Source of the DNA: a virus
Virus record (IMG/VR): IMGVR_UViG_3300018420_000012
Location: 27,944 to 91,943 of that record
Reading direction: 5' to 3' (one strand)
Length of the DNA: 64,000 nucleotides
The notes beneath the pieces were generated by a model, which saw nothing but the letters and a program-made list of their open reading frames with translations, made no database searches and was not told the origin of the DNA. The translations under genes were made by a program, and so were the position numbers. Below, in pieces: positions 4,118 to 42,816 of this stretch; positions within the stretch are counted from its first letter, which is position 1; every line of letters begins with the position of its first letter.

Positions 4118-4150
4118 ACTGGGAATAGGATCATTTTTCAGGAATTACGT

Positions 4151-4166: not shown

Positions 4167-4185
4167 CTTCAAACGGAGATTTCAA

Positions 4186-25300: not shown

Positions 25301-28300
25301 CCGCTGATAGAAAACTTGCAGATACAAGTCAAAAACTAGCTTCGACTCGTCGAGATGAGGCAATTCAAACTAGCAAAATCGAAACCTTATCAAAAAAATC
25401 ACGCGAGCTAAGAAGAGCTGGAGTAACAGCAGACAAAAATTCTCAGGATATTCAAAAAAGAGCACTTGCTACAATAGAGGCAAGAGCCAGAGCGTTAAAG
25501 AAGGAAAGAACAGAAACAAGAGCGAGCGTTACTACTCTGGTAACATCAGAGACTAGACTAAAGAAAGCTAGAAGTGTATCTATTCTACAAACAAATAAGC
25601 AAGCAAAAGCTGCAAATGCTCTTAATGCTAGAATACAAAGAAAGACAAGAATTGAGCAAATTAATAATAACACGCTTTTAAAAACCGAAGTTACTCTCGC
25701 GAAAATGAGGAACGCATACATAAAAGAAAGGGACGCACGCCGATCAGCCCAACAGGGAATGACTAGATTCCGGCGGAACCTTGTTAGATTATTTAATCCT
25801 GTTGCGGCAGCTAGTTCTAGTGTTAAAGTGCTAACGAGAGAAATATCAAAATTGAATCGTGAGGCTAAAAAGGGCAAGGGCTTTGGTCAGAGAGTTAGGG
25901 GTGGCATTGCCAAAGTTGGTGGTACACTCACTGCCGCTGGCGGTGGAGTTCTAGCTCTTGGTGCTATTGGAAGCCAAATTGCTTCGGGGTTCCAGCAGCT
26001 TGCCGACAGACAAAAGGATGTAGCGTTAAGACAGGGAAACACAGCTGGTGCTGTTAAGGCTGCTGGTGCATCTGCCCAAGCCGAGACGATTGGAGAATTA
26101 TTTACTGCTGCTGGTTATATTGAGGCACTTACAGACCCAGAAGGCTTCGCAAACAGAAGATTCGAGAAAAAACAGAGAGCAGAGGCCGACGCTGCGGTTG
26201 AAAGTTCGCTTAAAATTTCACAAGCAAGTGTTAAATCCTTGGGTGAAGGCGGGTTTAATAATCAAGATGGAACAATTGATTTTCAACGATCCGCCCAAGA
26301 CAGTGCTAAGGCTTTTGCAATAGCCAGAAGAGAAATTAGTCAGCTTCCATATGCAGAACGTGCGGCAGCGGAATCGAGGTTGTTAGATCAGCAAGTGGAA
26401 CAAATTACGAGTTTAGCTAATGCTGGTGCAAGTCTAACAGAACTACAAACAATTGCCGATCAGTTTACTGGTGGTTTCGGTAAAGGTTCCGATAGATTAA
26501 ATAAGCTAATAGACAGCCTTATCTTGGCTAGAGAAGTACAACAACAATTAAATAAAGCCAACATTGATAGTTTAAAAATTACTAGTGCATTTAACGCAGC
26601 TAATCTTGCCGTTCAAAACTTTACAAATCAAATCACTTCAGGTGCCGACCCTCTTCAGACATTCTTTAATACATTTGAGGCAAGCAAGCAAAATATTGGT
26701 ATTGATGCTTCTGCTGCAATTACTGAGATTGAAAATGCATTAGTCGAATCTGCCACCGGTGCTGGTGCTAGAAGATTAGCATCATCTATTCAGGGGCAAG
26801 CTGCTACGGCTAGGGCTGTAAATGAATTTAACGCAACCGCTGGTGCTAGAATATCTAATGTTAATTTACGAACAGGTGATGCTGGTAAAGAAGATTTAGA
26901 AAAGGCATTGCTAGAGGGCGTTGATGACCCTCAAATTAGAAAAGCTGTTAGAGCAAAAATCAATGCCCTAAATTCAGAAGAGATTGCCACAACCGATATC
27001 AGCAAGTTTGTTCAAGAAATTCAAGCTGAAGTTGGCGAACTAAGCAAGGGCTTCACTGGTGCTGCTCAGGCTTTACTTGCACATAATCAGCAAATGGCAC
27101 AGCTTTATGCAAAAAGAGAGCAATTAGAACAGGCGGCGGCAGAAGCACAAGTTAAAGCAATCGACACGCAAATTGAAGCTGCGAAGATTGCAGAAGAGTT
27201 TGGTGGTCCAAAAGTTACATCTGGGGCAATTGAAGCAGCCAGAGTAGCACAGTTTAATGCGATTGGTGGACTAGCTGGTGCTACACTTGGTAGCGGCTCC
27301 GCACAAGAAATAGGAAGAATCAGGCAGCAGTTGGCGGACCAGTTTGCTGCGGCAAATGAGACAGCTTTCCAAAATATAGTTCTTTCTGGTGCTGGCCTAA
27401 ATAATAGAGGTGCTTTTGCTGGACAGCAAGGAAATGTAGACGATGTAAGACCAGAAACGGTCAGAGCACAAGAAGCCTTAAATACTATAATTAGACAACA
27501 AATTGAAGCCAAAAAAGAAGAACTTAAAATAATCAAGGAAAAGAACGCAGCTGAAAAATCCGCTCTAGACAAATTAATAAGTGGCGATGTAGCAGGTTTT
27601 ATCGCACAGCAAGAAGCTGCCGGTGCAGCCGCAGCTCTTGAGACTGGAGATAGAGGCTTGGCTGGCTTGTTTGACGCTTCTGCACTCGGTGCTGGATTCA
27701 AGGAGCTTGAAAAGCGTGGTGCCGCAACCTTCGAGGCCGCACAAGCTACCCTTTCCTCTTTTGGTATTGCTGACACTAGTAGTGCTAGGGTTCTCTCTGG
27801 CACGACAGCTCAAGAAGAGGCGGCTAAGTCACAGATCAGAGCACTAGCTGGTGAACTTGGTCAACTAGCTACAGATCAGGCGGTTATTGCACAGTCGAAT
27901 ATTTCGATTCAAGATGCAACAATTACTGCTGCACAGGTTAGCTTCGAGAGGGGATTAAGGACGACATCTGAAAATAATACTTCCGAAGTCAGCTCAGTGT
28001 CTCAATTCGCTAGAGGGGGAACCGTTTATGCGAACCGTGGAATGTTTGTTCCTCGTGGAACCGATACTGTTCCAGCTATGTTGACTCCGGGAGAGTTTGT
28101 GGTTAATCGTTCGGCAGTTCAGCGTGGTAACAATTTGCAAATTTTAAACGCCATGAACTCTGGTGGCGGTGCTAGTTCGCCAACCGCAAAGAGTGGTGGC
28201 GGACCAGTTCAATATTATCGTTTTGGCGGCCTTGTGGACGCTATTAATTCAGCCTTCACATCTGCTGGAAATGGACTACAGGGTATATTTAATCAATTCG

Positions 28301-28515
28301 CTAAGAGCGTTCAAACATTAAGTGACACCAAGTTTTCTATTAAATTAGACCCAGTTCAGATAAATATTAATGGTGGATCATTCCTTGGTCTGATGAAGCA
28401 AGAGATCAAGGATGAATTACTCAAAGAAGTCGGTAAAGAGCTGCAAAAGGGAGGATTCAATAACACTGGATCATTTACAACTAGTAACTCAGTTTTACAG
28501 AGGCCAGCTGGCTAA
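22381..28515 (+). CDS. Tail tape measure protein, 2044 aa
   Basis: The N-terminal ~330 residues match the phage minor tail/TP901-type tape-measure core, with FERELIKISQVTGKTL, LGTARILSQAGFKANDLQAAL and GFRQIGKVIPLLQQ. Hydrophobic helices lie at about 415-450, 855-885 and 1180-1210. Residues ~890-1140 are a long, Lys/Arg/Ala-rich coiled-coil region, and ~1640-1780 another. The motif DTVPA(M/L)LTPGEFV(I/V), a hallmark I associate with tape measures, occurs three times, at about residues 472, 760 and 1895. At roughly 0.15 nm per residue, a fully helical measure of this length would set a tail near 0.3 micrometre, but the beta-rich inserts may not contribute. The ribosome-binding site is AAGGGATTATTATG. 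Antisense frames over its Ala-rich regions are composition artefacts. Confidence 0.92.
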   Translation: MSRFVLTAQLQLAAPTNTRNVIDQIRRELRSSGGVEIPVEVRGARQAERAVENVRRETERATGAADALGRSFGLATRRFAAFTVASRAVSLLTNNLSKAVDEAIAFERELIKISQVTGKTLKDLRGLTSTITELSTTLGVASSTLLGTARILSQAGFKANDLQAALTALAKTELAPTFDDINKTAEGAIAIFSQFGQGASALEAQLGSINAVAGQFAVESGDLIDAIRRTGGVFKSAGGTLEEFLGLFTSIRATTRESAESIATGLRTILTRIQRPSTIAYLEELGVNLTDLNGKFVGPFEAAKRLGEAFGSLEQGDLKFIQIAEELGGFRQIGKVIPLLQQSALAQDAYQAALKGTNSLSKDAETAQQSLSVQIAKVREEFLALIRGITDTGSFRTFTSIALGLASAFIKVADAIKPLLPLITAFAAVRFTAGISRFIGGAGAALRGAGPQARNAGGEILGFARGGFVPGSGNRDTVPAMLTPGEFVIKKSSAAKMGAGTLQAMNENRFAGGGRIPLSDVLGENKSPAIGFAILETDKASVASSTYDVNSSVLQDKLAKAGYTVDGNRKEAFKRLITPKARTGARQGVSEENSKQLQAAIDTGLIAGTNVAAQNAASVFGVQGITGVSEEASAEFISSINSASRGNLFENIISVFQNNLQGTAFSDTPGKPFDFEDGVDGLFGNTFNRLKGQTYVDAKASYDVASPRKNTGKIANQIADELIADAVLREKYGITTLEQASLSSGKGKPQKKNKGGGISGSSDTVPALLTPGEFVINKSSAQSIGYGNLNSMNKTGVARFAKGGPVGVQRFALGGGVQGAGLAAAGVGFAFQAIDKFAAVTEDASESTVKTNLALKGLLNSVLAVGLIFKGVVGLRAIINDWGNGVKKSTETTKQDTQATREATQATREEAQNNRQSTSGGGSGGSDDSDDENTQKLSKAEQNRIANAKKILELEKKRDVSAQRSIKSANKATAADRKLADTSQKLASTRRDEAIQTSKIETLSKKSRELRRAGVTADKNSQDIQKRALATIEARARALKKERTETRASVTTLVTSETRLKKARSVSILQTNKQAKAANALNARIQRKTRIEQINNNTLLKTEVTLAKMRNAYIKERDARRSAQQGMTRFRRNLVRLFNPVAAASSSVKVLTREISKLNREAKKGKGFGQRVRGGIAKVGGTLTAAGGGVLALGAIGSQIASGFQQLADRQKDVALRQGNTAGAVKAAGASAQAETIGELFTAAGYIEALTDPEGFANRRFEKKQRAEADAAVESSLKISQASVKSLGEGGFNNQDGTIDFQRSAQDSAKAFAIARREISQLPYAERAAAESRLLDQQVEQITSLANAGASLTELQTIADQFTGGFGKGSDRLNKLIDSLILAREVQQQLNKANIDSLKITSAFNAANLAVQNFTNQITSGADPLQTFFNTFEASKQNIGIDASAAITEIENALVESATGAGARRLASSIQGQAATARAVNEFNATAGARISNVNLRTGDAGKEDLEKALLEGVDDPQIRKAVRAKINALNSEEIATTDISKFVQEIQAEVGELSKGFTGAAQALLAHNQQMAQLYAKREQLEQAAAEAQVKAIDTQIEAAKIAEEFGGPKVTSGAIEAARVAQFNAIGGLAGATLGSGSAQEIGRIRQQLADQFAAANETAFQNIVLSGAGLNNRGAFAGQQGNVDDVRPETVRAQEALNTIIRQQIEAKKEELKIIKEKNAAEKSALDKLISGDVAGFIAQQEAAGAAAALETGDRGLAGLFDASALGAGFKELEKRGAATFEAAQATLSSFGIADTSSARVLSGTTAQEEAAKSQIRALAGELGQLATDQAVIAQSNISIQDATITAAQVSFERGLRTTSENNTSEVSSVSQFARGGTVYANRGMFVPRGTDTVPAMLTPGEFVVNRSAVQRGNNLQILNAMNSGGGASSPTAKSGGGPVQYYRFGGLVDAINSAFTSAGNGLQGIFNQFAKSVQTLSDTKFSIKLDPVQININGGSFLGLMKQEIKDELLKEVGKELQKGGFNNTGSFTTSNSVLQRPAG

Positions 28516-28531: not shown

Positions 28532-31500
28532 ATGTCAGATTTATTTTTTAAAGCACTAGAATGTTCTTGTGTAAAAGGAACCGCAGTTACTTGTCCTGCT
28601 GGTGGCGAGATCGTTGCAACTATGTCTGCGACAGCTACAATATCTGCTTCCGTTGAATCAGATTCAAAAATATTTTCACCACAACCCGCAGATATTTGCA
28701 ATGATACAGTTCAAGCCATTTCCGGTAGTGGCCCACTTTACCTTGTTACTACAAATGGTTCGTGTGGTGATATCAACACGGATTCTCTAGCTCAAATTTC
28801 TATTGGTGAAGAAACTTATTATTACAACATTATAACTATTGATGGTAATTCAATAACTTTAGAGTATGATAATAGTACAGACGATATTGATAGACAGATA
28901 GAGATTGGTGATAGTCTACAATTCACTACTTATCTTGACACTATTCCGGTAGCTATATCAAGAACAAGGGGTTTGTCACAAGTTGTCGAGGCTGACTCCG
29001 AGGTTTCAGCAAAGGCTTCTGCTAGAATTCAATTTGATCTAGACGCTTTCTTAGCGGAGGGTGAAATTGTTGAAGATTTATCAGCCGATTATTCTGCCAG
29101 TGGATTATTCATATCCGATGGGGAGTTTATAAATACAAATACCGACAAGGTTAATGGTGAATTTAGTGATTTTTATTGTCAACAAATTCTTTATCCAAGT
29201 GGCGACTTAGCTATTGATGAAGGGTTTGGCTCCTTCATCGCCGTCTATAATCAGAGTGGCAATCTTTATTCGTACATTGATGAGGGTGTCTATCAGGGCT
29301 TATTGATGGACCGTGGAGATTCCGTTCTATTAACCGACGATATAAATTCATTTATTCACCCAAATACAATTCACACAGAGGGCTTCTTTCAGTATAAATG
29401 CTCTCTTACAGAGCTATACGTTCGTCCAGACGATTCGTATTTAAGAATGAGGGTTTCTGCTCCACTCAGAAACTACGAATCTAGAATTGCCCCTCTCTAT
29501 ACCGTCTATAATATTAGGCTTAATGACCCATCTGGTAATCTTATTATTAAGTACAAAGATTTTACCGTAAGGGGAGACTCAGATCAAGAACATCCAAACT
29601 ATACAACTTACTCCATATCCACAGAGCAGAATGTATTAGCCGAAAGCTATGACTGGGAGAGAACGACACAGCCACATATGCACGAGGTTAGTGGCTATTC
29701 GTTGTCATTTAATATTAGAGCTATAGCACTTGATGATGCATTTACAGAAGGTTTTGACGAGGGCTTTGAAGAAAATTATATCATACCAGAAATATTTAAT
29801 GTTAGCGGTAATAATTATTTAGCACTAGATGGTTCTCCAATTTCCACCCAAGAAGAAAGATTTATTAATCCTACGGATGGGTTTAGAATTTCTGCTCTAG
29901 AAATTTGTAATAGTGGCGGGATTGGGTTTGGTTATAGAATAGAAAACACTCTGTCATTCTATACTGAAGTACCAGAAACCGGAAGAAGATTAGAGCGTCA
30001 AATTCTTCCTTCCTTTATGCCAGTGTCTACGTTTGATACATCAATCTGGCCTTCTGTTAGTAGTGTCTGGGAAAGCTCAAGAGACAACTCTGTTACCAAT
30101 CTTGATAAGTGCGGTTCAGAAGAACTAATTAAAATTCTAACGGGTGGTGGCCCTGATTATATTACCCTTAATGCTATGGGTGGCGATAATATTGCCGACT
30201 CTGGAAAACTCACCATTAAATTTTCTTATGGGCCTTCTCCTGTCAGCGAAGTGACATTAGGTGCGTTCAATTCTGATTTTGACCAAAACACTGAATCTAT
30301 TTGGTTTAGCCCAAGCGGTGCTTTTAATACAGAAAATACAACTACTGGAGATCGACTAAAGCAAGATTTGTCTTTTGTTGATATTGACACTCTCACACTC
30401 AAAGTTGTAGCCAAGAAAGAAATTGGTTCTAGAGATTACATCCTTGATGTTGTTGGATACAGTGATGATAAACTTCTAAATATGACCCCTGCTTCCGGTG
30501 GATTTATTCAAGACCCATCTGGAGTTATTCTTAATGATCTATTTGTTCCGAATGTAGGTCAACATCCAGTTCTGTCTGGTTTTTATTCTAATGGCAACGA
30601 CTTCGCACTTGGTGGCACCGCCATCTCCCAAAAAGAACAATACTATCAAGCCAGCGGAAACGATCACTATAAACTCGCTCAGTACCCAACTGTTACCGGT
30701 ACAGAATTTGAGACTTATGAGATACCTTTAGTTATTATAGATGAATCAGTAATCCTTGGTAAAGGTAAAGATTACAGTCTTAGCTCATTATTTGAACACC
30801 TATATTTAGATATATTTCCACTCCCAAGTGGTGCTAGTATCCGAGATATTTCTTTATGTGCTAGGTACAAACCACAAAACGCTTTGCAATTCTATACTGA
30901 AGGTGGAGAGGGCATAGGCAAGCCTCAAGATGGTAGGTCGGAAGCGGCATTATTCCCATCCGGCAGACAAACTGGTGATAATATATTAAATGCTGGTTCT
31001 GGATACGGCCCAATTTCTACCATAGAAGGTCTGCCCCATGCGTTTAGTTCGCCTGAGACAATCAAATCAAACTACTCAAGAAGGTGGCGTGGTCGTGAAG
31101 GCACAGTAAGAGGGCCATACGACATAGACCAGTTCTCGTTCTCTTTTGAGAATCCTCTATTAGATTATCCATTCTTGTCTGGTTACTTCAAGTTTGACGA
31201 TATTGAAGATGGATATGTCAAATCTGCGATTCTTGGCGGTGACTATGGAACCGTTAGTGGTTTAATAGTTGGCGACTTTGAATCATATCAGAATGTTGGA
31301 TGGAGACTAACAAGCGGAACCTTGTTCCAAGATGCTATGCCGGGATTCAGCGGGAACTATACGACAACCGACTGGACTTCTTTATCCAACGGGTCAACGA
31401 CGTTTGTTGGCAATCCAATGTACGGAAAAATTGCCGATGCTTTTGATAGAGTCGTAAGAATATCTGGCGAGTCACAGAATATTAACTTTGGAAATATTGA

Positions 31501-34500
31501 TACTGCGAGTGGCTTCTCTGTCTTTGCTAGATTTACACCGGACGTAAATGTTTCTGGTGCTGATTACGATTTATTTGAAAGCGGAATTTTATTCGCTAAG
31601 TGGGACGCTGCTGGCGATTTAGATTTTGCCCTAGCCTATAGTGGCGGCTTCTTAGCTGGTTATGCACAAGACGACATTGGTAATATTATCAAGGTTATAG
31701 ATACTGTACCTTATAGCGGATATCAATATCCATTAAATGTTATCTTAACTTATAACGATCATCAACAAAGCGGTCTTAAACTTTATACTGATAATGAATT
31801 CTGGCAAGATGAGTTCCCAGTATTGAGAGCAAGTGGTGGTCCTTTCTACAAAAACACAACTAACGCAGATTTAGTTCTTGGTTTTGGTGCTGGTTCTGGC
31901 GTTGGCATGAACATGCTCGTTAGTGAATTTGGTATTTCAACGTGGGCTTCTGGTGTCTATGGCTCTGGAACAAACATTGTAGAATCCAATGCCGATAGAA
32001 CATACAGACAGGTAACAGCTGAAGATTTCTTAATCAATAGTAGAGTTAAATTCTTTGACCCGGACGAGGTTGCTTCTAACGACTCCTACAAGTTGTGGGA
32101 TAGAGTAAATGAAGATACTTACAACGATTGGGATATTGGTGCTTTCCAGAACTGCATGTTCTCCTCTGCTTTTGATGAATTGCAGATCAGACCTAGCATG
32201 GAGCAGATTGTATTTGAGATCAAGCATCATGGTTCTGGTTATACTCAGTACGCAGACCTTCCCTCTCCGTCATCTGTAAATAGTGGTGTGTCCTACCACA
32301 CCCAGATTGAAAACGACTTCCTTCGTTTCCACCTGACAGATGTTCCAGATAATTTCTACTCAGTAAATAGAAGAATCACCAAGACATTACCGATTGGGTA
32401 CAAGTTCTCAGAGAAAGCACTTGTTGTAGAGAGCGTGATCGAACATCACTCTAGCGGAGATATTGTATGGCCTGAGTGTGATGGTCAAGAGGGTCCACGA
32501 TTAATCATTAGTCTTTACACCAAAAACAAAGACCCATACTGGAATACTACTGAGCCTAACTGGGGATTGGTTAATAGAAAAATTCATTATGTGCCACCAT
32601 CTGCTTGTATTTATAGATTTGATAGCACGTTTACCTATGATGATATTTGCGACACCTCAGAAGAGTGGGCTATTTTCCCACAAGAGCCAAGACAGAGAGA
32701 ATTTAAAGAGTCTTATTTCTCTGATGATGTAAACGATATGTTCGTTCAGTACGACCTTGTTTACCCATCCGGCCCAGCTTTTGAGTCAAGGCTTGACCTC
32801 CATTCATCACACATCAGAATGTCAGAGGCCAATATCCTCAAATTAGATGATTCTGGCGTTATGAATCTTTACGCAAGTGGCGGATTCCCAGCTACAGAAT
32901 TCATTAATTTGGTTTGTGGTGAAATTGCTGTGTCTGGCACAGATAGTTTGCCATTGTTGATTGGCACTCCATTGCCGCTTGATAACCTTGAAGATACATC
33001 TGGTTCTGGATTCTTCTTAACAATCAGTGGTGCAATTAGAGTAGCTGAAATTTTACCTCTCTTTACACCTCTACAGTCTGGTATTGAATATCTAGACCTA
33101 TTCATTAGTGGTCAAGAGCCTAGCTCAACTTCTAGCAGTATGAACTTGGCTATGCCTTATACCATTGGCTTCTTTGATTCGTCGAGCGATGCAAACATTA
33201 GAACCACCAGTGGCGGTGGCGGCGGTGGAGGTGGCGGTGGTCAGTCTACGGGTGGCGATCCCGGAGATGATGCTACAATCGGCGGTAAACCACCAGCTAG
33301 TATTACATCAAGTTTCTTTGGTATGCCAATGGTTCTACTTGGAGAATCTGGAGTATATGCAAATAATGATATTCCGCTATATGTCTATGCGACAAATATC
33401 GGAACCTCTGGCAGTTCTACAAACATGCCAATGACCCTTTGGAATAATTTCAATAATACTACCGCAGCAAATAATTCTGGCGTTCTCAATCTAACAACTA
33501 GAGCTATAGGCAAAATAAGAAGTAGATTTAGAAGCGATTACATGCCGCTATTTATCTCTGCACCATTAACACCATCTGCTATACTTCCTTTATACGTTAC
33601 TAACTTCAATATTCCTGTTCAGAATACTGGTAGTATGAACCTAATGACGGCTAATTACTCGTCGGCTGGCGGTTCTGCTTATGGGTTGTGGGATAATATT
33701 AATTACGGAACTGGTATTGAGCTTGATGATAATGTCTACGCAACAGTTCCAGTAGACAATGAAATAAGGGGCGTTGATCTGACGGCTTATGGCTCTTGTG
33801 ATGGTGATAGTCCAAGTAAAGCTATTGATCGTGCCTTGGCTACCGACTGCGTAGCTTGGAGAGAAGAAACGTGTAATGACGGCGGTATATTTAGAGCCAA
33901 AGAAACTTACACAAACCCCGAAGCAACTGGGTTTGACGGGGTAACTCTTGGCTATAGCGGCAATTACTATGGTCTTAGAAAGTTTACCGATCTAGTTCCT
34001 TCGTATAATTATTACACAACTGTAACTATCAAGACCGGCTCTACTGACCCAATTCCTGTGCCAAGAACTTTTGAGGAATGGGAATATGGAATGTGCGGCC
34101 CCGCTTGGGACGCTGATGGTTGCTGCACAGAAGATTGCGATCAGAACCTCGTGTTCTCTGGTGTTAAGTTGATTGGTGACGATGCCTGTGGTGTTCCTCC
34201 ATCCAGTAACCTGTGTGTAGACCCAGATTCTATCGTAGCCTCTGGCAGACATGAATTTGCTAAGTATGGCAAAGCTCTGGCCGTAAAGAATGATTTAATG
34301 GCTGTATCTGCTCCTAATCAAACTATTCCAGAGTACGATATTTATTCAGACCCACCGACTATGGTAGATGTCAGCGGTGCTGGCTCTGTATTCCTTTATC
34401 GTAGAGGCGACGACGTTGCTGGCAAAAAGGCTTCTTGGGAACTCGCAACACAACTCATGCTTCCTACTGGATACCGAAAAGACTACCCTCAAAGAACCAT

Positions 34501-37500
34501 TGACAATCTTCTTAGGTTCGATAACTTTACAATCTCTGGCGTTAAGTGGCAGATTGGTCAAGAGGGTCGTCAATTTGGTGAGTCTGTAGACTTATGTTCT
34601 AGCGGCGATAGAGAAGTAGTTGTAGTTGGAGCACCTAGAGCAAAATGGAGTAGAAACTTTGAAGATATTGTAACGTCTGGAATACCAACCGCTGCTATTA
34701 TCTTTGCCGATAGGTTTGCATATAGTGAAGTCTCTCTAAATAGAATTGCTGCAACAGCTAAAAGATTTGACATCTTATGGAAGTATTTCTCGGCACCTTG
34801 GTATGCAGACTCAATTTATGGTGGAACCCCACCTGAGTTCCAACCTCAGATTGAAACAAAGTTCTTGGTTATTCAATCTTCATTGTCTAGTAAAGATAAT
34901 CCACTAGTTCCTTCTGACAATGATTGGTTTAAGCACATCTATATTCCAAGATTAGATGATTATGATCTATTGGTAGAGACTGGCTCTGGCGTATTCAGCG
35001 ATGCCGGTCAAACGGGGACCGTTCAGCAATACTTTAACTCTGGACTTCCAGTTGTATTTGAACAAATCAATAGTGGTATTAAAGCAGCCTTCTTTGAATT
35101 GTTCCCAAGCGGAAGGTCAGATGTTCTCTATAGTGGTGTACCAGCTATTGTTGGAATGTTCCAAGAGCAAAGCTCGTCTACGTTAGGTGCCTTATCATTT
35201 ACTTCTGAGGGCGGAACTTTCAATTCTGTATACAAAGAGTTTGAAGATTTCTATAACTCTTATTCCATTAGTGGTGTCTATAATCAGATTACTGGAAATC
35301 CTGAAAGTGGACACTTAAATATTGTTCAAGATAGGTCAGAAGATTGGGTTGAAACTACTCAAGAATTGATCTATAACACATTTGACTCTGGAAGGCTTGC
35401 GTCGTCTTACACGAATACAACACTAAATCAATACTTCATCACTAGCGGTGTTGGTCAAGAGTTTGCACAAGAATTCAACATTAATGAATTCCAGATCGCT
35501 CCAGCTTCCGGTGGTCGTGTTTACATCTTTGAAAATGAGAGGGGTAACTTTAATTGTATCCAGCAGATTATTTCTCCTAATGATACATCAGACTTCTTTA
35601 ACGACGAGACAGATTGGTATCTCGGAAACTCTTATGGCAAAAACTACAATGATAGATTTGGTCACTCTGTTTCTATTAGCCAAAACGGTGAAGTTATTTC
35701 TGTTGGCTCTCCATTCTTAGCTGGCTCTCCATGTAGAATCTATGAAAGATCAGAGTCAGCAAATGCATTATTCTATGATGCAGTAAGAAGTTTTGCGTCC
35801 TACATAGGAAACACGGACGCTGTAGATCATTATGACAATATCCTCGCGTTGTCTGGTGCTGCCGTTGCGAAAGAATCAGCCTATGACTATCTAAATGATT
35901 CAGAGAGATTTAGATTAAGAACTGATATAAACTTCTGGGACGGCGATCCACCTAGTGTTTATCAAATTAGCTTTAGCTATAGCTATGGCGATATCGAGTA
36001 TCGGGGCACGAGAAAGTTCTTGCCAGATGAGTTCGCTGGCGGATCAAGGCTTGGTTGGAGTACAGCGACCTCTGATGCTGGTGATTTTGTAGCCTTTGGA
36101 GCACCTACAGACTCGTTCAACCTGTTTGAAGATGTAAACGTCTGGGGCGACGATGAATTGTCTTGGGCTTCTTATAATAATGCTGGTGCTGTTAGAGTAT
36201 TCGAGTCCAGAAAATATTACCCTCATGACAAAGTTGTGGAGTTTGGTAGATTTGGAAACCTAGACAGATCATTCCACAACGAAGAGCGTAATCTTGGTTA
36301 TTATGATGTATGGGATCAGGTATTTGCTTCTGGTTCAGACGGAGAAATTGATTATCAAGGGCACGATTGGCGTAGAATGAATTTTTCGGAAATAGAAATT
36401 CCTACCGATGCCGGTCTTGCATTTATTATCACTCCAGAGATAGACGCTGCCAGCGATGAGATTATTGATAACATTAAGAGTTGGTTAGCACTTGGCGATA
36501 GAAACCTTGTACTTGTGGGTAATGATCCAGTCTGGGAAGAAAATGGTTTATATTCAGATTCTAATGATATAATCAATAACATCCTGAAAAAACTTGGCTC
36601 TAGAATGAAAATCGTTCCAGCCAAAAATGAGCAATATTCATTACAAGGTTGCGTAAGTCTTGAAGATGTAGATGATGATAAATTTAATGTAACACCTTCA
36701 TTACTTCCAGCTCATAGTGCCGGAAGAACTATAGCCGCAGGAAATTACTTTGGTAAGGGTTTTGGTGATATTAGAATTAATCTTGAAGCTGATGGTCAAG
36801 AAGATTTTGTAGAATACATGGACTGCCCTGAAGGTTTAAATGGTAAAGTTATAAATGAAAGATGTGAATTTCCACTCAAGCATCTTGGTGACTTGAGGGC
36901 ACAGTGGCGTGAACAATGTATTTCTACCGGTGGCGGTGAAACTAGGGTTATCAACTATGTTAGAAACTGGCCTCAGATGTTTAACAATGTCCCAAGCTAT
37001 TGTGATGAGCCGCCAATTTATCTTCGTGACGACGCAAGACAAGAGCCAGTTCCTGTTTTAACGACAGCGGAAACTCTACCTGATCGCCCTTGGTCTGTTC
37101 CAGAATCTTCTGGGTACTTCTTTGAGACCTACGGTATTTACGAGTGGCGTTCTTGGACGACTAGCTCAACTGTATATTCTTTTGCTGATACGCATATAGA
37201 CCATGTAGATTTTGATATTTATGAAAATTCTGATTCATCCGTTTCTGGTAATTACACATTATTTGATATCGGTACATATTTTGATCCAGAATTGATTAAT
37301 GCAAGAGATGCGTTAATTCAAGCTAGTGCTGTACCAGTCTTGGTTGGGTATAATCAAACCAAAACCAATATTATTCATGACGAGCATATCATAGCTCTTG
37401 CGGAGTCTGGCAAAAATGACCTCGGAGAATTAAACAGCTCTAGAATTTATCTGATTGCTACCCAGTGGTCCGAAGATGACGCGAGTAGAGGCATAGACGA

Positions 37501-40500
37501 CGGAACCGATAACCAAGACAAGAATACAGAGTTTTATCTTAATCTTGTAACCGAAGATTGTGATAGCATTGCTGGGCCGCGAGGTATTCAGATCAATGGA
37601 TTTACTGGCAGAACATCTCTTAATAATGCTTACTTCTATAACGGTGATGAAAATGACGGTCATTCTCTTGCAAACAAACTTAAAGTTGAGCTAAGTAGAG
37701 ACAGCTCTGGCGGGTATTTCTTAGAAAATAAAAAGACTTCTGATTTGACGGAGTTTGTAGATTTCGCTTGGGTCGCACATCCAAGCGGTAAACCTTCGGC
37801 TCAAGAAATTACAGAAATGAAAAACTGGCTCAATGAGGGTGGCAAAAGACTTATCATCACTTACAATGCTGCAAACTCTGATGATATGAGGCGGGTTGCT
37901 GCTAATGTTGATTATCTATGTAGTGGAATAAATGTAACAAGTAGACCACTTTACGTTCCTTCGCTTGGTTCTTATCAGGTTTCCAACGGTGTCATAGACT
38001 CTTATCGTGACGATGACGGTGGTAGATTTGACACAGATTATGGCGATGTGCAACTTGTAAATACTTCAACAGATTCTATAGCTGGCTGCCCTAATGGGTT
38101 CGCTTACAATTCTGTTTATAACGACTCTACCGCTCTTAGTGGGCTTCATTTCTCAGAACGGTCAGATAATCTTTATAGTTCAGCACTTTCGGATTATAGC
38201 CTAAAAAGAGTTATTCCTATCTCTGGAGGTCAGGATTATGAAAAGATCGTCTGGACAAGTAGAGCGGTAACGGAAAGAGTGTCTGTTCCACCAATAAGAA
38301 GATATAATATAGATGCTCAATCAACGTTCACATTCCCAACCATTCAAAACTCTGGCTACAGAATTTTCTTTGATTGGGTTTCTGAATCGGATCAAGATAA
38401 ATATCCAATTGATATTACCGCTTCAAATGCTTCATTTTCTCCATTTCCTGCATTAAGTGATGATGATAATACTTTCTACGGCTTATCACTAGATCAAACT
38501 CTATCTTTGAATCCAGAAAGTCGTCACATAGACGTGCGTGCTACCAGTGATAGTATTTCTATCGCAGCGTATTCAAGAGAATCTATAGGTGAAGACGAGG
38601 TATCTAATGATGGGTCTATATTCACAACAAGATTACTAGCCATTTCTGGTGCTCCACTTCCGATTACTTCAGAAGTTGCAACAAGTAATGGTAGTGGTTT
38701 GTATCAGGTAGATGAAGTAGTTGTGAATGAGAGATATGTAGTTTATCCTGCTAGAAGCGGTATTATCGAGGGCGAATTTAGACCTGTTTCTCATTTAAGT
38801 TCTATATACTGCAATTCTGAAAATGGTGAAATCTGCGATAGTTTGGGCGATCAAACAATAGAAGATGGTCCGGTTGTCGCGGCTGAAGAGTATGAAAACT
38901 TCTCGTCTTTCCCAGCCGGAAGAAGGAAGTCAAAGATTATTGTTATTAGTGACTCAAGTATGGTTCAGGGGCAATGTCCTCATTATAGATACTCGGCAAT
39001 TCAAGGGAATCAAGCATTTATCAGAAGTCTTTATCCTACTTCTCCTCAAAATTACTTTAGCCCACAAGACGACTCTGATATTTTTGATGACGGCTATCAG
39101 ATAAGAGATGGTAGAAACTTCTACTTTGCACAGAAAATTAGAGCACCTGAACGTGGAAGTGCCGCTAAATATCATGCTGTATCTGGTTCGAGTGTAAGTA
39201 ATATAACTTCGCCTTTATATGGTGGTAATGGTGTTGCTGGAGCACTTGGTAATTATACCGACAATGAAGATAATATTGATCCAACAACTCTTGTTAGACC
39301 AATCGGCCCTAAAAACGTATACAAAATTAGGGATCGTAAAAACGAATTCTTTACCAGTGATGCTCTTGGTGATTACGGAATTTACCCAAGATTCAGTGGC
39401 GACTTCCTAGATTATGCGAATTACCTTGATGGTCAAGACAGTTACGATGAATTGCTTGGGCTTCCATCTGGAACAAATAGAGACTTTATCCTAGATATGG
39501 GTATTGGTGGTGGTATCACTGAACTCATGAAGATCAATAATACTGACTATCTAGATTTAGATGTTTATTATTCTGGATGCTTGGGCGATTTGTTTGGTTA
39601 CTCAATTGATATCACTGACGATAAATTGATTGTCGGTGCCCCATTTAATGCTTTCCACGCTGAAACTGCAATTAGTGGTGTTAGTGGTATTGTTCAGTGG
39701 CATGAAATAGTAAACGGCGAAGCTGGCTCTGGAATTAAGATTGCAGAAGATGGTGGTGCTGGTGCTGCGTTTGTTTACCACAGGACTGGCAGGGGAGAGA
39801 ATATTATTGAAGAATTCTTACCTTGGGAATTTATCTCTAAGTTGAAGCCAAGCAGTCTAAATGTTGGTGTTTACGACTTTACGCCAGACCCAAGAACAGC
39901 ATTTGAGCAACAGCGAGGTATTGATATTCAGAACAATCCTTCGTTTATTTTAGATCATGGTAAGAGATCAGACAACTTTGGTATTTCGGTATCTATTGAT
40001 TGCGACATGGCTGTTATTGGTGCTCCAAACCACGACTATGAGACATTACATCATCATATCTATAGCGGTGCAGTAGCACTAAATGGTAGTGGCCTGAGTA
40101 CAGCTTTACACAGAAAGAGCTTTAATGCAGAGTTTGACATTCCAACCCACTCATTCTATGATTTGGGTAGCTCCGGTGTAAGAGTTGATGACTTCAATAA
40201 TAATAGCGGTGTTGCGATTCTCAATAATGGTGCTGTATTTAATTACCGATATGAGCTGACAGACTTCCAAGCTCGCGAGCAAAATTGGGTTTATGCACAA
40301 AAATTGGTAGCACAAGGCTATAAAGATAGAACTGCTACTCAGTTTGGCCCTCCATTACCTCCAGATTTTGAAACATATATTACTTCTAGCGGCACAGAAA
40401 ATGATAGATTTGGAGCTGCTGTAGCGATAGACAGAGCGTACAGGGGTGATAGTGACTACACATTGGTTGCTGGCTCTCCTCAACACGATTGGTCAACCAG

Positions 40501-41092
40501 TGGGGATCATCCTACTAGTGGCTTGGCTAATGCTGGTGCCGCCTATACCTTTGATGCTATGTTGAGACAGCAAGTTCCAGCTATTCCAAATAGCGGTGGA
40601 TGGATTGACGTTAAAGTATTTGGGGTCGGATACGAAGAACCTATTTACCAGAGAATTTACCAAAATGCATCTGGGGATTCTATCACCTATCAATATAGTG
40701 GTGTTTTGACCACAGATAGAGATGGCGATATTTTCCTTGAGGTTTCTGGCTTTGATCCTTCTAGCAAGGGGTTTGTAGCACATCGTCCATATGTAGAATC
40801 AGTGTTATTTACGCTGGCCGATGGTACTGAAGTGACAGATTCTATGCAGCTAATTATAGGTGGAAAACCAATAGAAGATTCGGGTATTTTGCCTCTCGTT
40901 CTTTCTGGTGATCCTTCAGCAATTGTGTATAATAATGTGAATCTGTATAATTACGGTGTTTCTGGTTCCCCAAGTGGCTCCTTCAATTTGTTCTTGGATG
41001 CACCTAGCGGCTATTCTAGCGGAAATATGAACTTGGTTATTGGTAACAATTATGTTACTGAAAACTTAGAATTAAGAATAAGAGGATACTAA
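28532..41092 (+). CDS. Giant distal-tail protein with FG-GAP-like propeller repeats, 4186 aa
   Basis: Starts 16 nt after the tape measure. Residues ~955-1160 resemble a LamG/concanavalin-type lectin domain (GFSVFARFTPD, FAKWDAAGDLDFALAYSGG). Residues ~1443-1700 and ~4106-4186 carry short strand repeats such as ILPLFTPLQSG, YMPLFISAP and NMNLVIGNN; ten glycines in a row lie at 1561-1570. Seven FG-GAP-like repeats (for example DRFGHSVSISQNGEVISVGSP) lie at about 1908, 2013, 2373, 2503, 3684, 3812 and 3956. The ~1150 residues between the fourth and fifth contain segments (~2627, ~3077, ~3467) resembling DUF4350/GldG-type modules. The location directly after the tape measure suggests a tail-tip or side-fibre component. 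The domain calls are by eye and approximate; no lytic motif is obvious. Confidence 0.85.
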   Translation: MSDLFFKALECSCVKGTAVTCPAGGEIVATMSATATISASVESDSKIFSPQPADICNDTVQAISGSGPLYLVTTNGSCGDINTDSLAQISIGEETYYYNIITIDGNSITLEYDNSTDDIDRQIEIGDSLQFTTYLDTIPVAISRTRGLSQVVEADSEVSAKASARIQFDLDAFLAEGEIVEDLSADYSASGLFISDGEFINTNTDKVNGEFSDFYCQQILYPSGDLAIDEGFGSFIAVYNQSGNLYSYIDEGVYQGLLMDRGDSVLLTDDINSFIHPNTIHTEGFFQYKCSLTELYVRPDDSYLRMRVSAPLRNYESRIAPLYTVYNIRLNDPSGNLIIKYKDFTVRGDSDQEHPNYTTYSISTEQNVLAESYDWERTTQPHMHEVSGYSLSFNIRAIALDDAFTEGFDEGFEENYIIPEIFNVSGNNYLALDGSPISTQEERFINPTDGFRISALEICNSGGIGFGYRIENTLSFYTEVPETGRRLERQILPSFMPVSTFDTSIWPSVSSVWESSRDNSVTNLDKCGSEELIKILTGGGPDYITLNAMGGDNIADSGKLTIKFSYGPSPVSEVTLGAFNSDFDQNTESIWFSPSGAFNTENTTTGDRLKQDLSFVDIDTLTLKVVAKKEIGSRDYILDVVGYSDDKLLNMTPASGGFIQDPSGVILNDLFVPNVGQHPVLSGFYSNGNDFALGGTAISQKEQYYQASGNDHYKLAQYPTVTGTEFETYEIPLVIIDESVILGKGKDYSLSSLFEHLYLDIFPLPSGASIRDISLCARYKPQNALQFYTEGGEGIGKPQDGRSEAALFPSGRQTGDNILNAGSGYGPISTIEGLPHAFSSPETIKSNYSRRWRGREGTVRGPYDIDQFSFSFENPLLDYPFLSGYFKFDDIEDGYVKSAILGGDYGTVSGLIVGDFESYQNVGWRLTSGTLFQDAMPGFSGNYTTTDWTSLSNGSTTFVGNPMYGKIADAFDRVVRISGESQNINFGNIDTASGFSVFARFTPDVNVSGADYDLFESGILFAKWDAAGDLDFALAYSGGFLAGYAQDDIGNIIKVIDTVPYSGYQYPLNVILTYNDHQQSGLKLYTDNEFWQDEFPVLRASGGPFYKNTTNADLVLGFGAGSGVGMNMLVSEFGISTWASGVYGSGTNIVESNADRTYRQVTAEDFLINSRVKFFDPDEVASNDSYKLWDRVNEDTYNDWDIGAFQNCMFSSAFDELQIRPSMEQIVFEIKHHGSGYTQYADLPSPSSVNSGVSYHTQIENDFLRFHLTDVPDNFYSVNRRITKTLPIGYKFSEKALVVESVIEHHSSGDIVWPECDGQEGPRLIISLYTKNKDPYWNTTEPNWGLVNRKIHYVPPSACIYRFDSTFTYDDICDTSEEWAIFPQEPRQREFKESYFSDDVNDMFVQYDLVYPSGPAFESRLDLHSSHIRMSEANILKLDDSGVMNLYASGGFPATEFINLVCGEIAVSGTDSLPLLIGTPLPLDNLEDTSGSGFFLTISGAIRVAEILPLFTPLQSGIEYLDLFISGQEPSSTSSSMNLAMPYTIGFFDSSSDANIRTTSGGGGGGGGGGQSTGGDPGDDATIGGKPPASITSSFFGMPMVLLGESGVYANNDIPLYVYATNIGTSGSSTNMPMTLWNNFNNTTAANNSGVLNLTTRAIGKIRSRFRSDYMPLFISAPLTPSAILPLYVTNFNIPVQNTGSMNLMTANYSSAGGSAYGLWDNINYGTGIELDDNVYATVPVDNEIRGVDLTAYGSCDGDSPSKAIDRALATDCVAWREETCNDGGIFRAKETYTNPEATGFDGVTLGYSGNYYGLRKFTDLVPSYNYYTTVTIKTGSTDPIPVPRTFEEWEYGMCGPAWDADGCCTEDCDQNLVFSGVKLIGDDACGVPPSSNLCVDPDSIVASGRHEFAKYGKALAVKNDLMAVSAPNQTIPEYDIYSDPPTMVDVSGAGSVFLYRRGDDVAGKKASWELATQLMLPTGYRKDYPQRTIDNLLRFDNFTISGVKWQIGQEGRQFGESVDLCSSGDREVVVVGAPRAKWSRNFEDIVTSGIPTAAIIFADRFAYSEVSLNRIAATAKRFDILWKYFSAPWYADSIYGGTPPEFQPQIETKFLVIQSSLSSKDNPLVPSDNDWFKHIYIPRLDDYDLLVETGSGVFSDAGQTGTVQQYFNSGLPVVFEQINSGIKAAFFELFPSGRSDVLYSGVPAIVGMFQEQSSSTLGALSFTSEGGTFNSVYKEFEDFYNSYSISGVYNQITGNPESGHLNIVQDRSEDWVETTQELIYNTFDSGRLASSYTNTTLNQYFITSGVGQEFAQEFNINEFQIAPASGGRVYIFENERGNFNCIQQIISPNDTSDFFNDETDWYLGNSYGKNYNDRFGHSVSISQNGEVISVGSPFLAGSPCRIYERSESANALFYDAVRSFASYIGNTDAVDHYDNILALSGAAVAKESAYDYLNDSERFRLRTDINFWDGDPPSVYQISFSYSYGDIEYRGTRKFLPDEFAGGSRLGWSTATSDAGDFVAFGAPTDSFNLFEDVNVWGDDELSWASYNNAGAVRVFESRKYYPHDKVVEFGRFGNLDRSFHNEERNLGYYDVWDQVFASGSDGEIDYQGHDWRRMNFSEIEIPTDAGLAFIITPEIDAASDEIIDNIKSWLALGDRNLVLVGNDPVWEENGLYSDSNDIINNILKKLGSRMKIVPAKNEQYSLQGCVSLEDVDDDKFNVTPSLLPAHSAGRTIAAGNYFGKGFGDIRINLEADGQEDFVEYMDCPEGLNGKVINERCEFPLKHLGDLRAQWREQCISTGGGETRVINYVRNWPQMFNNVPSYCDEPPIYLRDDARQEPVPVLTTAETLPDRPWSVPESSGYFFETYGIYEWRSWTTSSTVYSFADTHIDHVDFDIYENSDSSVSGNYTLFDIGTYFDPELINARDALIQASAVPVLVGYNQTKTNIIHDEHIIALAESGKNDLGELNSSRIYLIATQWSEDDASRGIDDGTDNQDKNTEFYLNLVTEDCDSIAGPRGIQINGFTGRTSLNNAYFYNGDENDGHSLANKLKVELSRDSSGGYFLENKKTSDLTEFVDFAWVAHPSGKPSAQEITEMKNWLNEGGKRLIITYNAANSDDMRRVAANVDYLCSGINVTSRPLYVPSLGSYQVSNGVIDSYRDDDGGRFDTDYGDVQLVNTSTDSIAGCPNGFAYNSVYNDSTALSGLHFSERSDNLYSSALSDYSLKRVIPISGGQDYEKIVWTSRAVTERVSVPPIRRYNIDAQSTFTFPTIQNSGYRIFFDWVSESDQDKYPIDITASNASFSPFPALSDDDNTFYGLSLDQTLSLNPESRHIDVRATSDSISIAAYSRESIGEDEVSNDGSIFTTRLLAISGAPLPITSEVATSNGSGLYQVDEVVVNERYVVYPARSGIIEGEFRPVSHLSSIYCNSENGEICDSLGDQTIEDGPVVAAEEYENFSSFPAGRRKSKIIVISDSSMVQGQCPHYRYSAIQGNQAFIRSLYPTSPQNYFSPQDDSDIFDDGYQIRDGRNFYFAQKIRAPERGSAAKYHAVSGSSVSNITSPLYGGNGVAGALGNYTDNEDNIDPTTLVRPIGPKNVYKIRDRKNEFFTSDALGDYGIYPRFSGDFLDYANYLDGQDSYDELLGLPSGTNRDFILDMGIGGGITELMKINNTDYLDLDVYYSGCLGDLFGYSIDITDDKLIVGAPFNAFHAETAISGVSGIVQWHEIVNGEAGSGIKIAEDGGAGAAFVYHRTGRGENIIEEFLPWEFISKLKPSSLNVGVYDFTPDPRTAFEQQRGIDIQNNPSFILDHGKRSDNFGISVSIDCDMAVIGAPNHDYETLHHHIYSGAVALNGSGLSTALHRKSFNAEFDIPTHSFYDLGSSGVRVDDFNNNSGVAILNNGAVFNYRYELTDFQAREQNWVYAQKLVAQGYKDRTATQFGPPLPPDFETYITSSGTENDRFGAAVAIDRAYRGDSDYTLVAGSPQHDWSTSGDHPTSGLANAGAAYTFDAMLRQQVPAIPNSGGWIDVKVFGVGYEEPIYQRIYQNASGDSITYQYSGVLTTDRDGDIFLEVSGFDPSSKGFVAHRPYVESVLFTLADGTEVTDSMQLIIGGKPIEDSGILPLVLSGDPSAIVYNNVNLYNYGVSGSPSGSFNLFLDAPSGYSSGNMNLVIGNNYVTENLELRIRGY
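40922..40933 (+). promoter_or_regulatory. Weak candidate internal promoter (11/12 match)
   Basis: ATTGTGTATAAT differs from the intergenic 12-mer by one base and lies 158 nt before the start of the 574-aa gene. It is inside the coding sequence of the giant protein, where the same bases encode Ile-Val-Tyr-Asn. The match could be chance. Confidence 0.25.
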
Positions 41093-42816
41093 TGCCAATT
41101 AAAGTAAGGTATAATAACGATCAAACCCAAGAGTGCGTAATAAGACCTACGCCCTTTGTGCAGATTTCTGCGAATACACTTAAAAATAAAGTGGGTAATT
41201 TTGGCACTACTTATACTATTGTTTTGACGGGTACTTTACTGCCAGACGAGGGAACCCCTTACGCTATTGATCCAGCTACAGATCAGTTGCGTGAATTTTT
41301 TACACCAGCTAATACTGGCGATCTCATAGGCCCATTTGGACAGTTTGACAACAAGCCATTTAGCCAAAGAGACAGGCCGCAGCGTCAGAAGGTCATGAAG
41401 CCCGCCTCTGCCATTTTGAGCAAGCAGCGTGCCCTTAGAGCCTTATTCGCTAAAGACGGTCAGACGGTCATTATTACGGATATTTTTGACGACGCACCAG
41501 CGACTGTCTATTGCAACCCCAGAGTTGTAAGTATAGATTTTACAGAGGGGCCATATGTAAGCAGATGTGATTATACAATTAATCTAGAAGCAGATGTTCT
41601 TCTGCATGGAGATGTTGAGTCGGATGCATATATAGATCAGGGCTATACATCCTCTAGCGGAAATCTTGGGACGATCATTGGTGTTAGTTATGACAATTTT
41701 ATTGACGCTTCTGGTATGTTTATCGAGACGTTTTCTGAAGATTGGTCGTTAGAAGCGGAGGATGGTGGAGAAAGCATTTTAAACCCACGTCAGTATAGAA
41801 TTTCACACAATCTAAGTGCTGTCGGGAAAAAGCACTATGGGCACTCTGGGAGTGAAGATAAAGAGGCTTGGGAGCAAGCTAGAGACTTTGTTCTGCAAAG
41901 ACTTTCTAATAATATTAGTGGTAATTATCCCAATGTTGCTGGCCTAATTGGTAGCGGCACAGTAAATCTTGTTGATACTTATCAAGGATTTAATCACATT
42001 AGAACAGAGCAGATCGGTGTCTCTGATGGTAGCTACTCTGTCAGTGAAAATTGGTTATTATCCAGTGGAACAAGCACAGAAACTTATAACGCCAGTGTCT
42101 CAACCAGTAATACCGACCCTTTTGTTACCGTTAGCATTGACGGAACAATTAAGGGTCTCTCTGAAATCTCTCCTAGTGCATATTATGCACCGGGCGTGGA
42201 CATTGAATTACTCACCCAGACCAGCGGTGCTTTTGCAAACGCACGTAAAAAATACAATGAAGTTTCCAACAGTGGAAAGTTTGGCCTGACAAGCGATATT
42301 TATAACAGAGCAAATAATCTTGTATCTGTTACGCTTAATTCTCAGCCCACATCGGTTACTTTAGCCACCAATGAATATACAGGTGATCTAACCTACAATT
42401 TACAATTTAACAATAGACCTACAAATATTATTTCGGGCGTTCTTAGCGAAGAAATCAATGTTAATGATACTTATCCCGGAGATGTTTTTGCTGTCATTCC
42501 TGTTCTTGGTAGAAATACCGGTCCTGTGCTGCAATATATTGGTGGTAGAACAGAATATAAAAGAGATATTAATTTAAATTTGGTTATGGATTATACTAAG
42601 ATACCATACGGTTCTGGCAGAGAAACTTTGCTTCTCAAGAAGCCCAGTTTAGTTGAGCCAACAGCAAGTCAAATAGCTCGACTTTTAAGAGAATTAAGTC
42701 CAGCTGGAGAGCCCGGAATTAGAAAGTATTTTGTTTCGGCACCAACGGAACAGTGGAACCCAAAGAACGGCACATATTCATTTAATGTTTCTTTTACTTA
42801 TGAATTAGACAGATAG
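41092..42816 (+). CDS. Tail-tip/baseplate structural protein, 574 aa
   Basis: Overlaps the giant gene's stop (TAATG). The N-terminal ~190 residues contain VGNFGTTYTIVLTGTLLP and TVYCNPRVVSIDFTEGPYVSRCDYTI. This strand pattern recalls phage distal-tail or tube-fold proteins, in which a loop of substituted residues precedes two long strands. Residues ~240-330 carry a YRISHNLSAVGKKHYGHSG segment. Residues ~420-574 are another beta domain, ending NGTYSFNVSFTYELDR, with repeated short strands. Two similar beta halves might be duplicated tube-like folds. Location after the tape measure and the giant protein fits a distal-tail/baseplate ring. No catalytic motif is visible. The function is inferred. 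Confidence 0.7.
   Translation: MPIKVRYNNDQTQECVIRPTPFVQISANTLKNKVGNFGTTYTIVLTGTLLPDEGTPYAIDPATDQLREFFTPANTGDLIGPFGQFDNKPFSQRDRPQRQKVMKPASAILSKQRALRALFAKDGQTVIITDIFDDAPATVYCNPRVVSIDFTEGPYVSRCDYTINLEADVLLHGDVESDAYIDQGYTSSSGNLGTIIGVSYDNFIDASGMFIETFSEDWSLEAEDGGESILNPRQYRISHNLSAVGKKHYGHSGSEDKEAWEQARDFVLQRLSNNISGNYPNVAGLIGSGTVNLVDTYQGFNHIRTEQIGVSDGSYSVSENWLLSSGTSTETYNASVSTSNTDPFVTVSIDGTIKGLSEISPSAYYAPGVDIELLTQTSGAFANARKKYNEVSNSGKFGLTSDIYNRANNLVSVTLNSQPTSVTLATNEYTGDLTYNLQFNNRPTNIISGVLSEEINVNDTYPGDVFAVIPVLGRNTGPVLQYIGGRTEYKRDINLNLVMDYTKIPYGSGRETLLLKKPSLVEPTASQIARLLRELSPAGEPGIRKYFVSAPTEQWNPKNGTYSFNVSFTYELDR

What the first reader, a model, noticed from the sequence alone, without database searches (positions are those of the whole stretch)
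34251..40480. Seven FG-GAP-like blades scattered across 2000 residues of one virion protein
Within the 4186-aa protein, seven segments of the form (D/F)xFGxS(V/I)xI....(V/I)xVGAP occur at about residues 1908, 2013, 2373, 2503, 3684, 3812 and 3956. Seven is the number of blades in an integrin-alpha-type beta-propeller. They are separated by inserts of about 105, 360, 130, 1180, 128 and 144 residues. This could be one seven-bladed propeller in which blades carry very large insertions, a design I do not know for phage tail proteins. A receptor-binding or calcium-dependent adhesion role would be consistent with FG-GAP proteins.
Basis: partly seen in the sequence, partly recalled or inferred. Interest (0 to 1): 0.7.

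Follow-up and report, generated by a model that had tools for sequence, protein, structure and literature searches.

The report
Split seven-bladed propeller in phage tail protein
A very large tail protein of uncultured, probably marine, phages carries one integrin-like seven-bladed propeller that is interrupted by whole extra domains, including about 960 amino acids spliced into a single blade, and it probably serves as the platform that presents host-binding modules.

Summary
The 4186-aa ORF (28532-41092, +) has exactly seven FG-GAP_2 units (PF14312, E 5e-18) at the stated places and no eighth. All seven, and the insert positions, are kept in 27 aligned homologs from IMG/VR and two MAG contigs (one fragment ends before blade 5). 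None is in 50,697 phage records.

The single-propeller reading is supported. A profile of the outer (D) strands of blades 1, 2, 5 and 6, scanned blind over the ~1120 residues between blades 4 and 5, gives one peak (residue 3530, 13.3 bits; next independent position 0.4). Blade 4's last strand therefore lies beyond the ~960-aa insert, and blades 1-4 and 5-7 are one series. AlphaFold2 of blades 1-4 gives the A-B-C-D strands, with an alpha/beta domain inserted in blade 2 and a helical one in blade 3. Its best PDB matches are alphaI-domain integrins. The blade-4 insert contains alpha/beta and carbohydrate-binding-like jelly-roll domains and no blades.

The calcium idea fails: no DxDxDG loop in any blade of 28 sequences. 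A closed ring was not modelled, because the region exceeds the folding limit. Receptor binding is inferred, not shown. I file it as a new variant of a known kind.

The parts
28532..41092 (+). 4186-aa giant tail protein that carries the split propeller
   Evidence: Pfam FG-GAP_2 E 5.4e-18; directly downstream of the tape-measure gene, also in homologs
34139..34186 (+). Candidate closing (velcro) D strand, residues 1870-1885, within DQNLVFSGVKLIGDD; would complete blade 7
   Evidence: conserved in the homologs; weak D-profile score, 3.1 bits in the best register, against -1.2 C-terminal to blade 7; low pLDDT in a model that lacks blade 7; inference
34235..34474 (+). Blade 1, residues 1902-1981 (A YGKALAV, B MAVSAP, C GSVFLYRR, D WELATQL)
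34550..34639 (+). Blade 2 strands A-B, residues 2007-2036 (FGESVDL ... VVVGAP)
34664..35491 (+). Insert I, residues 2045-2320, in the B-C loop of blade 2: alpha/beta (Rossmann-like) domain; 224-289 residues in the family
   Evidence: length conserved in 28 sequences; beta-alpha order in the model; alphaI integrins are the top PDB fold matches
35504..35578 (+). Blade 2 strands C-D, residues 2325-2349 (GGRVYIFE, FNCIQQIIS)
   Evidence: pLDDT about 92 directly after insert I; D strand used in the profile
35633..35752 (+). Blade 3 strands A-C, residues 2368-2407
35753..35941 (+). Insert II, residues 2408-2470, in the C-D loop of blade 3: helical domain
   Evidence: helices with pLDDT mostly above 90; 77-97 residues between marks in the homologs
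35957..35983 (+). Blade 3 strand D, about residues 2476-2484
   Evidence: strand in the model only; not found by the D-strand profile
36026..36217 (+). Blade 4 strands A-C, residues 2499-2562 (RLGWSTA, FVAFGAPTDS, AGAVRVFESR)
36224..39106 (+). Insert III, residues 2565-3525, in the C-D loop of blade 4: alpha/beta modules (DUF4350-like, weak) and jelly-roll beta-sandwich domains
   Evidence: 885-1069 aa between marks in the homologs with a complete insert; model of L060; Foldseek matches to CBMs, Eph, MAM; DUF4350 sub-threshold in 6 of 9 members
39116..39154 (+). Blade 4 strand D, residues 3529-3541 (FYFAQKIRAPERG)
   Evidence: single peak of the D-strand profile, 13.3 bits against 0.4 for the next independent position of 911
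39164..39526 (+). Insert IV, residues 3545-3665, in the blade 4-5 connection
   Evidence: 112-150 residues between marks in the complete homologs
39569..39871 (+). Blade 5, residues 3680-3780
   Evidence: FG-GAP_2 hit
39953..40327 (+). Blade 6, residues 3808-3932, with about 50 aa extra in the B-C loop
   Evidence: best FG-GAP_2 hit, E 2.6e-8
40385..40567 (+). Blade 7, residues 3952-4012 (strands A-C)
   Evidence: FG-GAP_2 hit
22381..28515 (+). Upstream neighbour: tape-measure protein, 2044 aa
   Evidence: PHROG tail length tape measure E 1e-24, Pfam PhageMin_Tail E 4e-23; homologous gene upstream of the giant gene in six loci
41092..42816 (+). Downstream neighbour, 574 aa, conserved with the giant gene
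   Evidence: 65% identity to the L001 neighbour; 570-630-aa ORF in the same place in the other loci examined

Best explanation
The giant tail protein contains one seven-bladed FG-GAP_2 beta-propeller (residues about 1870-4012) whose blades are interrupted by folded domains: an alpha/beta domain in the B-C loop of blade 2, a helical domain in the C-D loop of blade 3, about 960 residues of alpha/beta and jelly-roll domains in the C-D loop of blade 4, and about 120 residues between blades 4 and 5. The ring is most likely closed by the strand just before blade 1. Mechanistically (inferred) the propeller is a rigid hub near the tail tip, made by the gene after the tape measure, that presents the inserted modules, including carbohydrate-binding-like jelly rolls, to the host surface. 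Shown here: seven units, their conservation, insert positions, and the blade-4 strand beyond the insert. Inferred: ring closure, virion location, host binding. The confidence given is for the single-propeller architecture; for the host-binding role I would give about 0.55.
For: Exactly seven units and no eighth. All seven and the insert positions are kept in the homologs down to about 37% identity. A D-strand profile trained on blades 1, 2, 5 and 6 finds one match between blades 4 and 5, beyond the 960-aa insert. AlphaFold2 of residues 1860-2600 (mean pLDDT 73.8) gives the blade strands with inserts I and II between them, and strands resume with pLDDT about 92 after insert I. Foldseek finds integrin alpha propellers, E 3e-7, and FG-GAP proteins of giant viruses and uncultured tailed phages. 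The insert III model has alpha/beta and jelly-roll domains and no integrin-type propeller among its best 50 hits. The tape-measure gene lies upstream here and in homologs.
Against: No full-length model of the closed ring was possible (1200-aa limit), and TM-scores of the partial model against integrins are low (0.14-0.19), as an open arc with large inserts would give but without proof. Blades 1 and 4 are recovered by the other blades in only 8 and 2 of 22 sequences. The D strand of blade 3 and the closing strand are not clearly identified by profile. The model of blade 4, insert III and blade 5 is of modest quality (mean pLDDT 65.6, pTM 0.41), and the blades in it are poorly predicted. No virion proteomics or binding data exist.
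Confidence: 0.8

Rival explanations
1. Two separate assemblies: blades 1-4 and blades 5-7 belong to different propellers, each completed by degenerate blades or by another copy of the protein in an oligomer.
For: About 960 residues separate the groups; only separate pieces could be modelled. Domain-swapped or intermolecular propellers are conceivable.
Against: No further blades are detected anywhere in the protein. Blade 4's D strand lies next to blade 5, beyond the insert. Three blades alone do not form a known closed propeller (general knowledge). The total is seven in every complete homolog.
Confidence: 0.1
2. The propeller is only an internal architectural part of the tail tip or baseplate, and host binding is done by other proteins, such as the trimeric-fibre-like ORF 11866-16377.
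For: It is encoded next to the tape measure and is well conserved, 29-75% identity per 100 residues against L001, where receptor-binding tips are often hypervariable (general knowledge). The genome also encodes a fibre-like repeat protein.
Against: Jelly-roll domains resembling CBM, Eph and MAM ligand-binding domains inside insert III point to ligand binding; mean column identity falls from 47% for the blade 1-4 region to 43% for insert I and 39% for insert III.
Confidence: 0.35
3. Calcium-dependent integrin-like adhesion.
For: FG-GAP fold and similarity to integrin alpha headpieces.
Against: No DxDxDG-like A-B loop in any of seven blades of 28 sequences. The invariant D after the first strand of insert I is followed by D-x-F-x-Y in most members, not the MIDAS D-x-S-x-S.
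Confidence: 0.04

Closest known systems
Integrin alpha-subunit beta-propeller (FG-GAP), especially the alphaI-domain integrins alphaL, alphaX, alphaM
   Same: Seven FG-GAP blades; an alpha/beta domain inserted around blade 2; best PDB fold matches. The integrin I domain sits between blades 2 and 3 (PMC4237329, PMC12422189).
   Different: No Ca2+ loops and no MIDAS; the insert is in the B-C loop of blade 2 rather than after blade 2; extra inserts in blades 3 and 4; phage tail gene. Homology of insert I to vWA is not shown (no sequence match).
Bacterial FG-GAP_2 (PF14312) repeat proteins and bacterial integrin-type propellers (PMC3192720)
   Same: Same repeat family; seven repeats is the integrin-type number (PMC3192720).
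   Different: The bacterial integrin-type examples of PMC3192720 carry Ca2+ motifs in all seven blades; here there are none, and folded domains interrupt three blades.
FG-GAP proteins of viruses: prasinovirus MntV1, medusavirus (PMC11467894), giant viruses and uncultured Caudovirales in BFVD
   Same: Virus-encoded FG-GAP propellers; for MntV1 a role in attachment is proposed.
   Different: Several matches are compact proteins of 279-415 aa; I found no description of this insert design, but did not examine their structures one by one.

Membership tests
FG-GAP_2 repeat family (PF14312) | Score above the curated Pfam cut-off | tested here: met
   65.4 bits against cut-off 23 for the window protein; 11 of 11 members of A5 match
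FG-GAP_2 repeat family (PF14312) | Each unit has A-B (FG...GAP), C (GxVYVF) and D (W...KL) strands | tested here: met
   sequence, predicted strands for blades 1-3, D strand of blade 4 by profile; D of blade 3 seen in the model only, D of blade 7 only inferred
Integrin-type seven-bladed propeller | Seven repeats | tested here: met
Integrin-type seven-bladed propeller | Single closed ring of seven blades | tested here: inconclusive
   series shown continuous across the inserts; closure not modelled (length limit)
Integrin-type seven-bladed propeller | DxDxDG Ca2+ loops (blades 5-7 in integrins; PMC3192720) | tested here: not met
   0 of 28 sequences in any blade
Integrin alphaI (vWA) insert | MIDAS motif DxSxS after the first strand | tested here: not met
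   D-x-F-x-Y in most members, invariant D only
Integrin alphaI (vWA) insert | vWA fold | tested here: inconclusive
   strand-helix order of the model resembles vWA; top fold matches are alphaI integrins but aligned ranges are not given; no sequence match
Phage receptor-binding / tail-tip protein | Present in the virion and binds the host | not testable with these tools
   only gene position and CBM-like folds

The most novel reading that the evidence does not exclude
A phage lineage evolved, independently of animals, an integrin-alphaI-like head: a seven-bladed FG-GAP propeller with a vWA-like alpha/beta domain inserted at blade 2, which works as a ligand-binding and perhaps conformationally coupled module at the tail tip, with a second ligand-binding cluster spliced into blade 4.
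Probability: 0.15. Interest if true: 0.85.

Novelty: new variant of a known kind. Interest (0 to 1): 0.58.

Why it matters
If right, it is an extreme case of domain insertion: a toroidal fold that keeps its register although its chain is interrupted by about 960 residues inside one four-stranded blade, conserved across a diverse group of uncultured phages. It gives a concrete, testable model for how giant phage tail proteins are built (a propeller hub with plug-in modules), shows an integrin-type propeller in a phage tail gene, and suggests a convergent parallel to alphaI integrins. It also warns that profile scans that require contiguous repeats will miss such propellers.

Tried and rejected
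PF01839 (FG-GAP) search of the own genome: no hit, although PF14312 hits. Sequence searches of the PDB with the region and with profiles of insert I, insert III and the C-terminal part: nothing significant. PHROGs on the giant protein: nothing; weak scattered hits only for the C-terminal alignment. Phage records (50,697): no match to the propeller region or to the 574-aa neighbour. A homolog with short inserts, which would have let the whole ring be folded: none found, insert III is 885-1069 aa between marks wherever it is complete. A short HMM of D strands was too weak and was replaced by an ungapped profile. A D-strand-like match at residue 214 (11.9 bits) was looked at; no GAP turn follows, and the FG-like stretch after it is lost in distant homologs, so I reject it as an eighth blade. 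A metalloprotease reading of insert III (weak IMPa match) is not supported: no HExxH in any homolog.
Full report
What was checked. The window lies in a virus record of 91,943 bases. The ORF 28532-41092 (+) encodes 4186 aa. Pfam calls FG-GAP_2, PF14312, at E 5.4e-18; the genome-level scan reports five separate matches in the window genome and six in the relative G001.

Homologs. tblastn-confirmed scans of IMG/VR found 13 loci from the first half and 29 from the second half, the latter at 37 to 64% identity to the window protein. Two MAG contigs (labelled Verrucomicrobiales and SAR202) carry the gene too; their proteins have the same lengths as the IMG/VR loci L010 and L017, so they may be phage contigs co-binned with these MAGs, and they do not settle the host. 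No phage record matches. The seven blades and all insert positions are kept: insert I region 224-289 residues, insert II region 77-97, insert III region 885-1069 in complete sequences, connection 4-5 112-150. Gene order is kept as well: the tape-measure gene upstream in six loci (identified in the window), and a conserved ORF of about 570-630 aa downstream.

Is it exactly seven? A profile built from all blades of the homologs (window protein excluded) hits only the seven places in the window protein, 16-39 bits, against at most -1.0 bits in shuffles. Leaving out each blade in turn, blades 3, 5, 6 and 7 are recovered from the others in 20-22 of 22 sequences, blade 2 in 15, blade 1 in 8 and blade 4 in 2; no place outside the blades exceeds 2.8 bits in any homolog.

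One propeller or two? FG-GAP units end with an outer D strand (W..xKL-like). I trained an ungapped profile on the D strands of blades 1, 2, 5 and 6 and scanned the stretch between the C strand of blade 4 and the A strand of blade 5. Of 911 scorable positions one stands out: residue 3530, FYFAQKIRAP, 13.3 bits; the next independent position has 0.4. Hence blade 4 is completed only after the insert of about 960 residues, the insert lies inside blade 4, and blades 1-4 and 5-7 form one series of seven. The same scan prefers the N-terminal side (3.1 bits, residues 1867-1876) over the C-terminal side (-1.2) for the seventh D strand, which would make an N-terminal velcro closure; this is weak and I mark it as inference. 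The D strand of blade 3 was not found by the profile, only in the model.

Structure. AlphaFold2 of residues 1860-2600 with 25 sequences gave mean pLDDT 73.8. Strands A, B, C and D of blades 1-3 and A-C of blade 4 are predicted where the sequence says; the first 40 residues, including the candidate closing strand, have low confidence, as expected when blade 7 is absent. Insert I is alpha/beta (beta-alpha-beta-beta-alpha-alpha-beta-alpha-beta-alpha), insert II a bundle of helices. Foldseek against the PDB ranks alphaL, alphaX, alphaX and alphaM integrins first (E 3.1e-7 to 1.9e-5, about 750-810 alignment columns), all of which have an I domain; alpha4, alphaV and alpha5 chains follow with E 4.6e-3 or worse. 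The I domain of integrins lies between blades 2 and 3 (PMC4237329; PMC12422189). This suggests that insert I aligns with the I domain, but the tool does not give aligned ranges, TM-scores are low, and there is no sequence match. Against BFVD the model matches FG-GAP proteins of giant viruses and of uncultured Caudovirales.

Insert III. To include insert III in one model I used L060, the homolog with the shortest insert, from the blade 3-4 junction through blade 5 (1199 aa). The model has mean pLDDT 65.6 and pTM 0.41: two alpha/beta modules with local pLDDT up to about 90, and beta-sandwich stretches; the blade parts are of low confidence, so this model does not itself show blade 4 closing around the insert. 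Foldseek hits are mostly jelly rolls: a putative Bacteroides sugar-binding protein, Eph receptor ligand-binding domains, CBM4/16/22/61 and MAM domains (E 8e-4 to 4e-2). DUF4350 hits six of nine members below threshold. The best 50 fold matches contain no integrin-type propeller.

Calcium. Integrin propellers carry DxDxDG loops between strands A and B of blades 5-7, and bacterial integrin-type examples carry them in all seven blades (PMC3192720). None of seven blades in 28 sequences has such a loop. The calcium-dependent reading is rejected on sequence.

Function. The gene follows the tape-measure gene, where tail-tip proteins are commonly encoded (general knowledge). Together with ligand-binding-type jelly rolls in insert III, the likeliest role is a hub that presents modules to the host surface. 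By general propeller topology, B-C and D-A loops lie on one face (insert I, insert IV, the extra loop of blade 6) and C-D loops on the other (inserts II and III), so both faces would be decorated. None of this is demonstrated.

Literature. Full-text searches for FG-GAP with phage or virion terms found no paper on a phage tail FG-GAP protein. A 2024 paper regarded MntV1 as possibly the first virus confirmed to have FG-GAP repeats (PMC11467894), although BFVD annotations show others. The library is limited to open licences.

Phage type. The 550-aa protein 7036-8688 resembles virion structural proteins of cyanophages and of Puniceispirillum phage HMO-2011 at 30-37% identity, which fits a marine phage; the host is unknown.

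Verdict. Observation confirmed; single-propeller interpretation supported but closure not modelled; calcium part not supported; function inferred.

Noticed in passing
28532-41092 and homologous proteins in L001-L066: The dipeptide Ser-Gly is 2.7 times enriched (104 observed, 38 expected) with varied codons; all 27 homologs show 2.25-3.12 times while Gly-Ser is about 1.0, yet only 42 of 104 sites are conserved in more than 80% of homologs. The small downstream protein 42821-43444 is also enriched (10 vs 2), whereas the tape measure and the large protein 43459-48477 and its counterparts are at or below expectation. Could be a modification site or a recurrent turn; unexplained.
   Followed up: partly
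56622-63779 (minus strand): A sugar-related cluster behind the tail genes: NAD epimerase/GDP-mannose dehydratase-like 56622-57581, GT2 glycosyltransferase 57582-58421, two-domain nucleotidyltransferase 59268-60815, class II aldolase 62419-63048, TylF-like methyltransferase 63045-63779.
   Followed up: partly
11866-16377: 1503-aa protein with many IGxxAGxxASGxxN-type repeats, reminiscent of trimeric-adhesin (YadA-like) head repeats; probably a fibre. Its high Ser-Gly count (65 vs 23) may come from these repeats.
   Followed up: partly
28532-41092, residues about 1441-1720 and 4100-4180: Recurring short modules of the type SGxMNLYxxG / LPLFxxG (e.g. SGVMNLYASGG, SGVLNLTT, SGSFNLFLDAPSG) on both sides of the propeller.
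   Followed up: no
28532-41092, residues 205-260: A stretch that resembles a propeller D strand followed by an FG (FYCQQILYPS ... GFGSFIAV), 11.9 bits in the D-strand profile; no GAP turn, and the FG is lost in distant homologs.
   Followed up: yes
L065 and L066: The gene also lies in contigs of MAGs labelled Verrucomicrobiales and SAR202, with the same protein lengths as IMG/VR loci L010 and L017; possibly phage contigs co-binned with those MAGs, which may hint at hosts.
   Followed up: no
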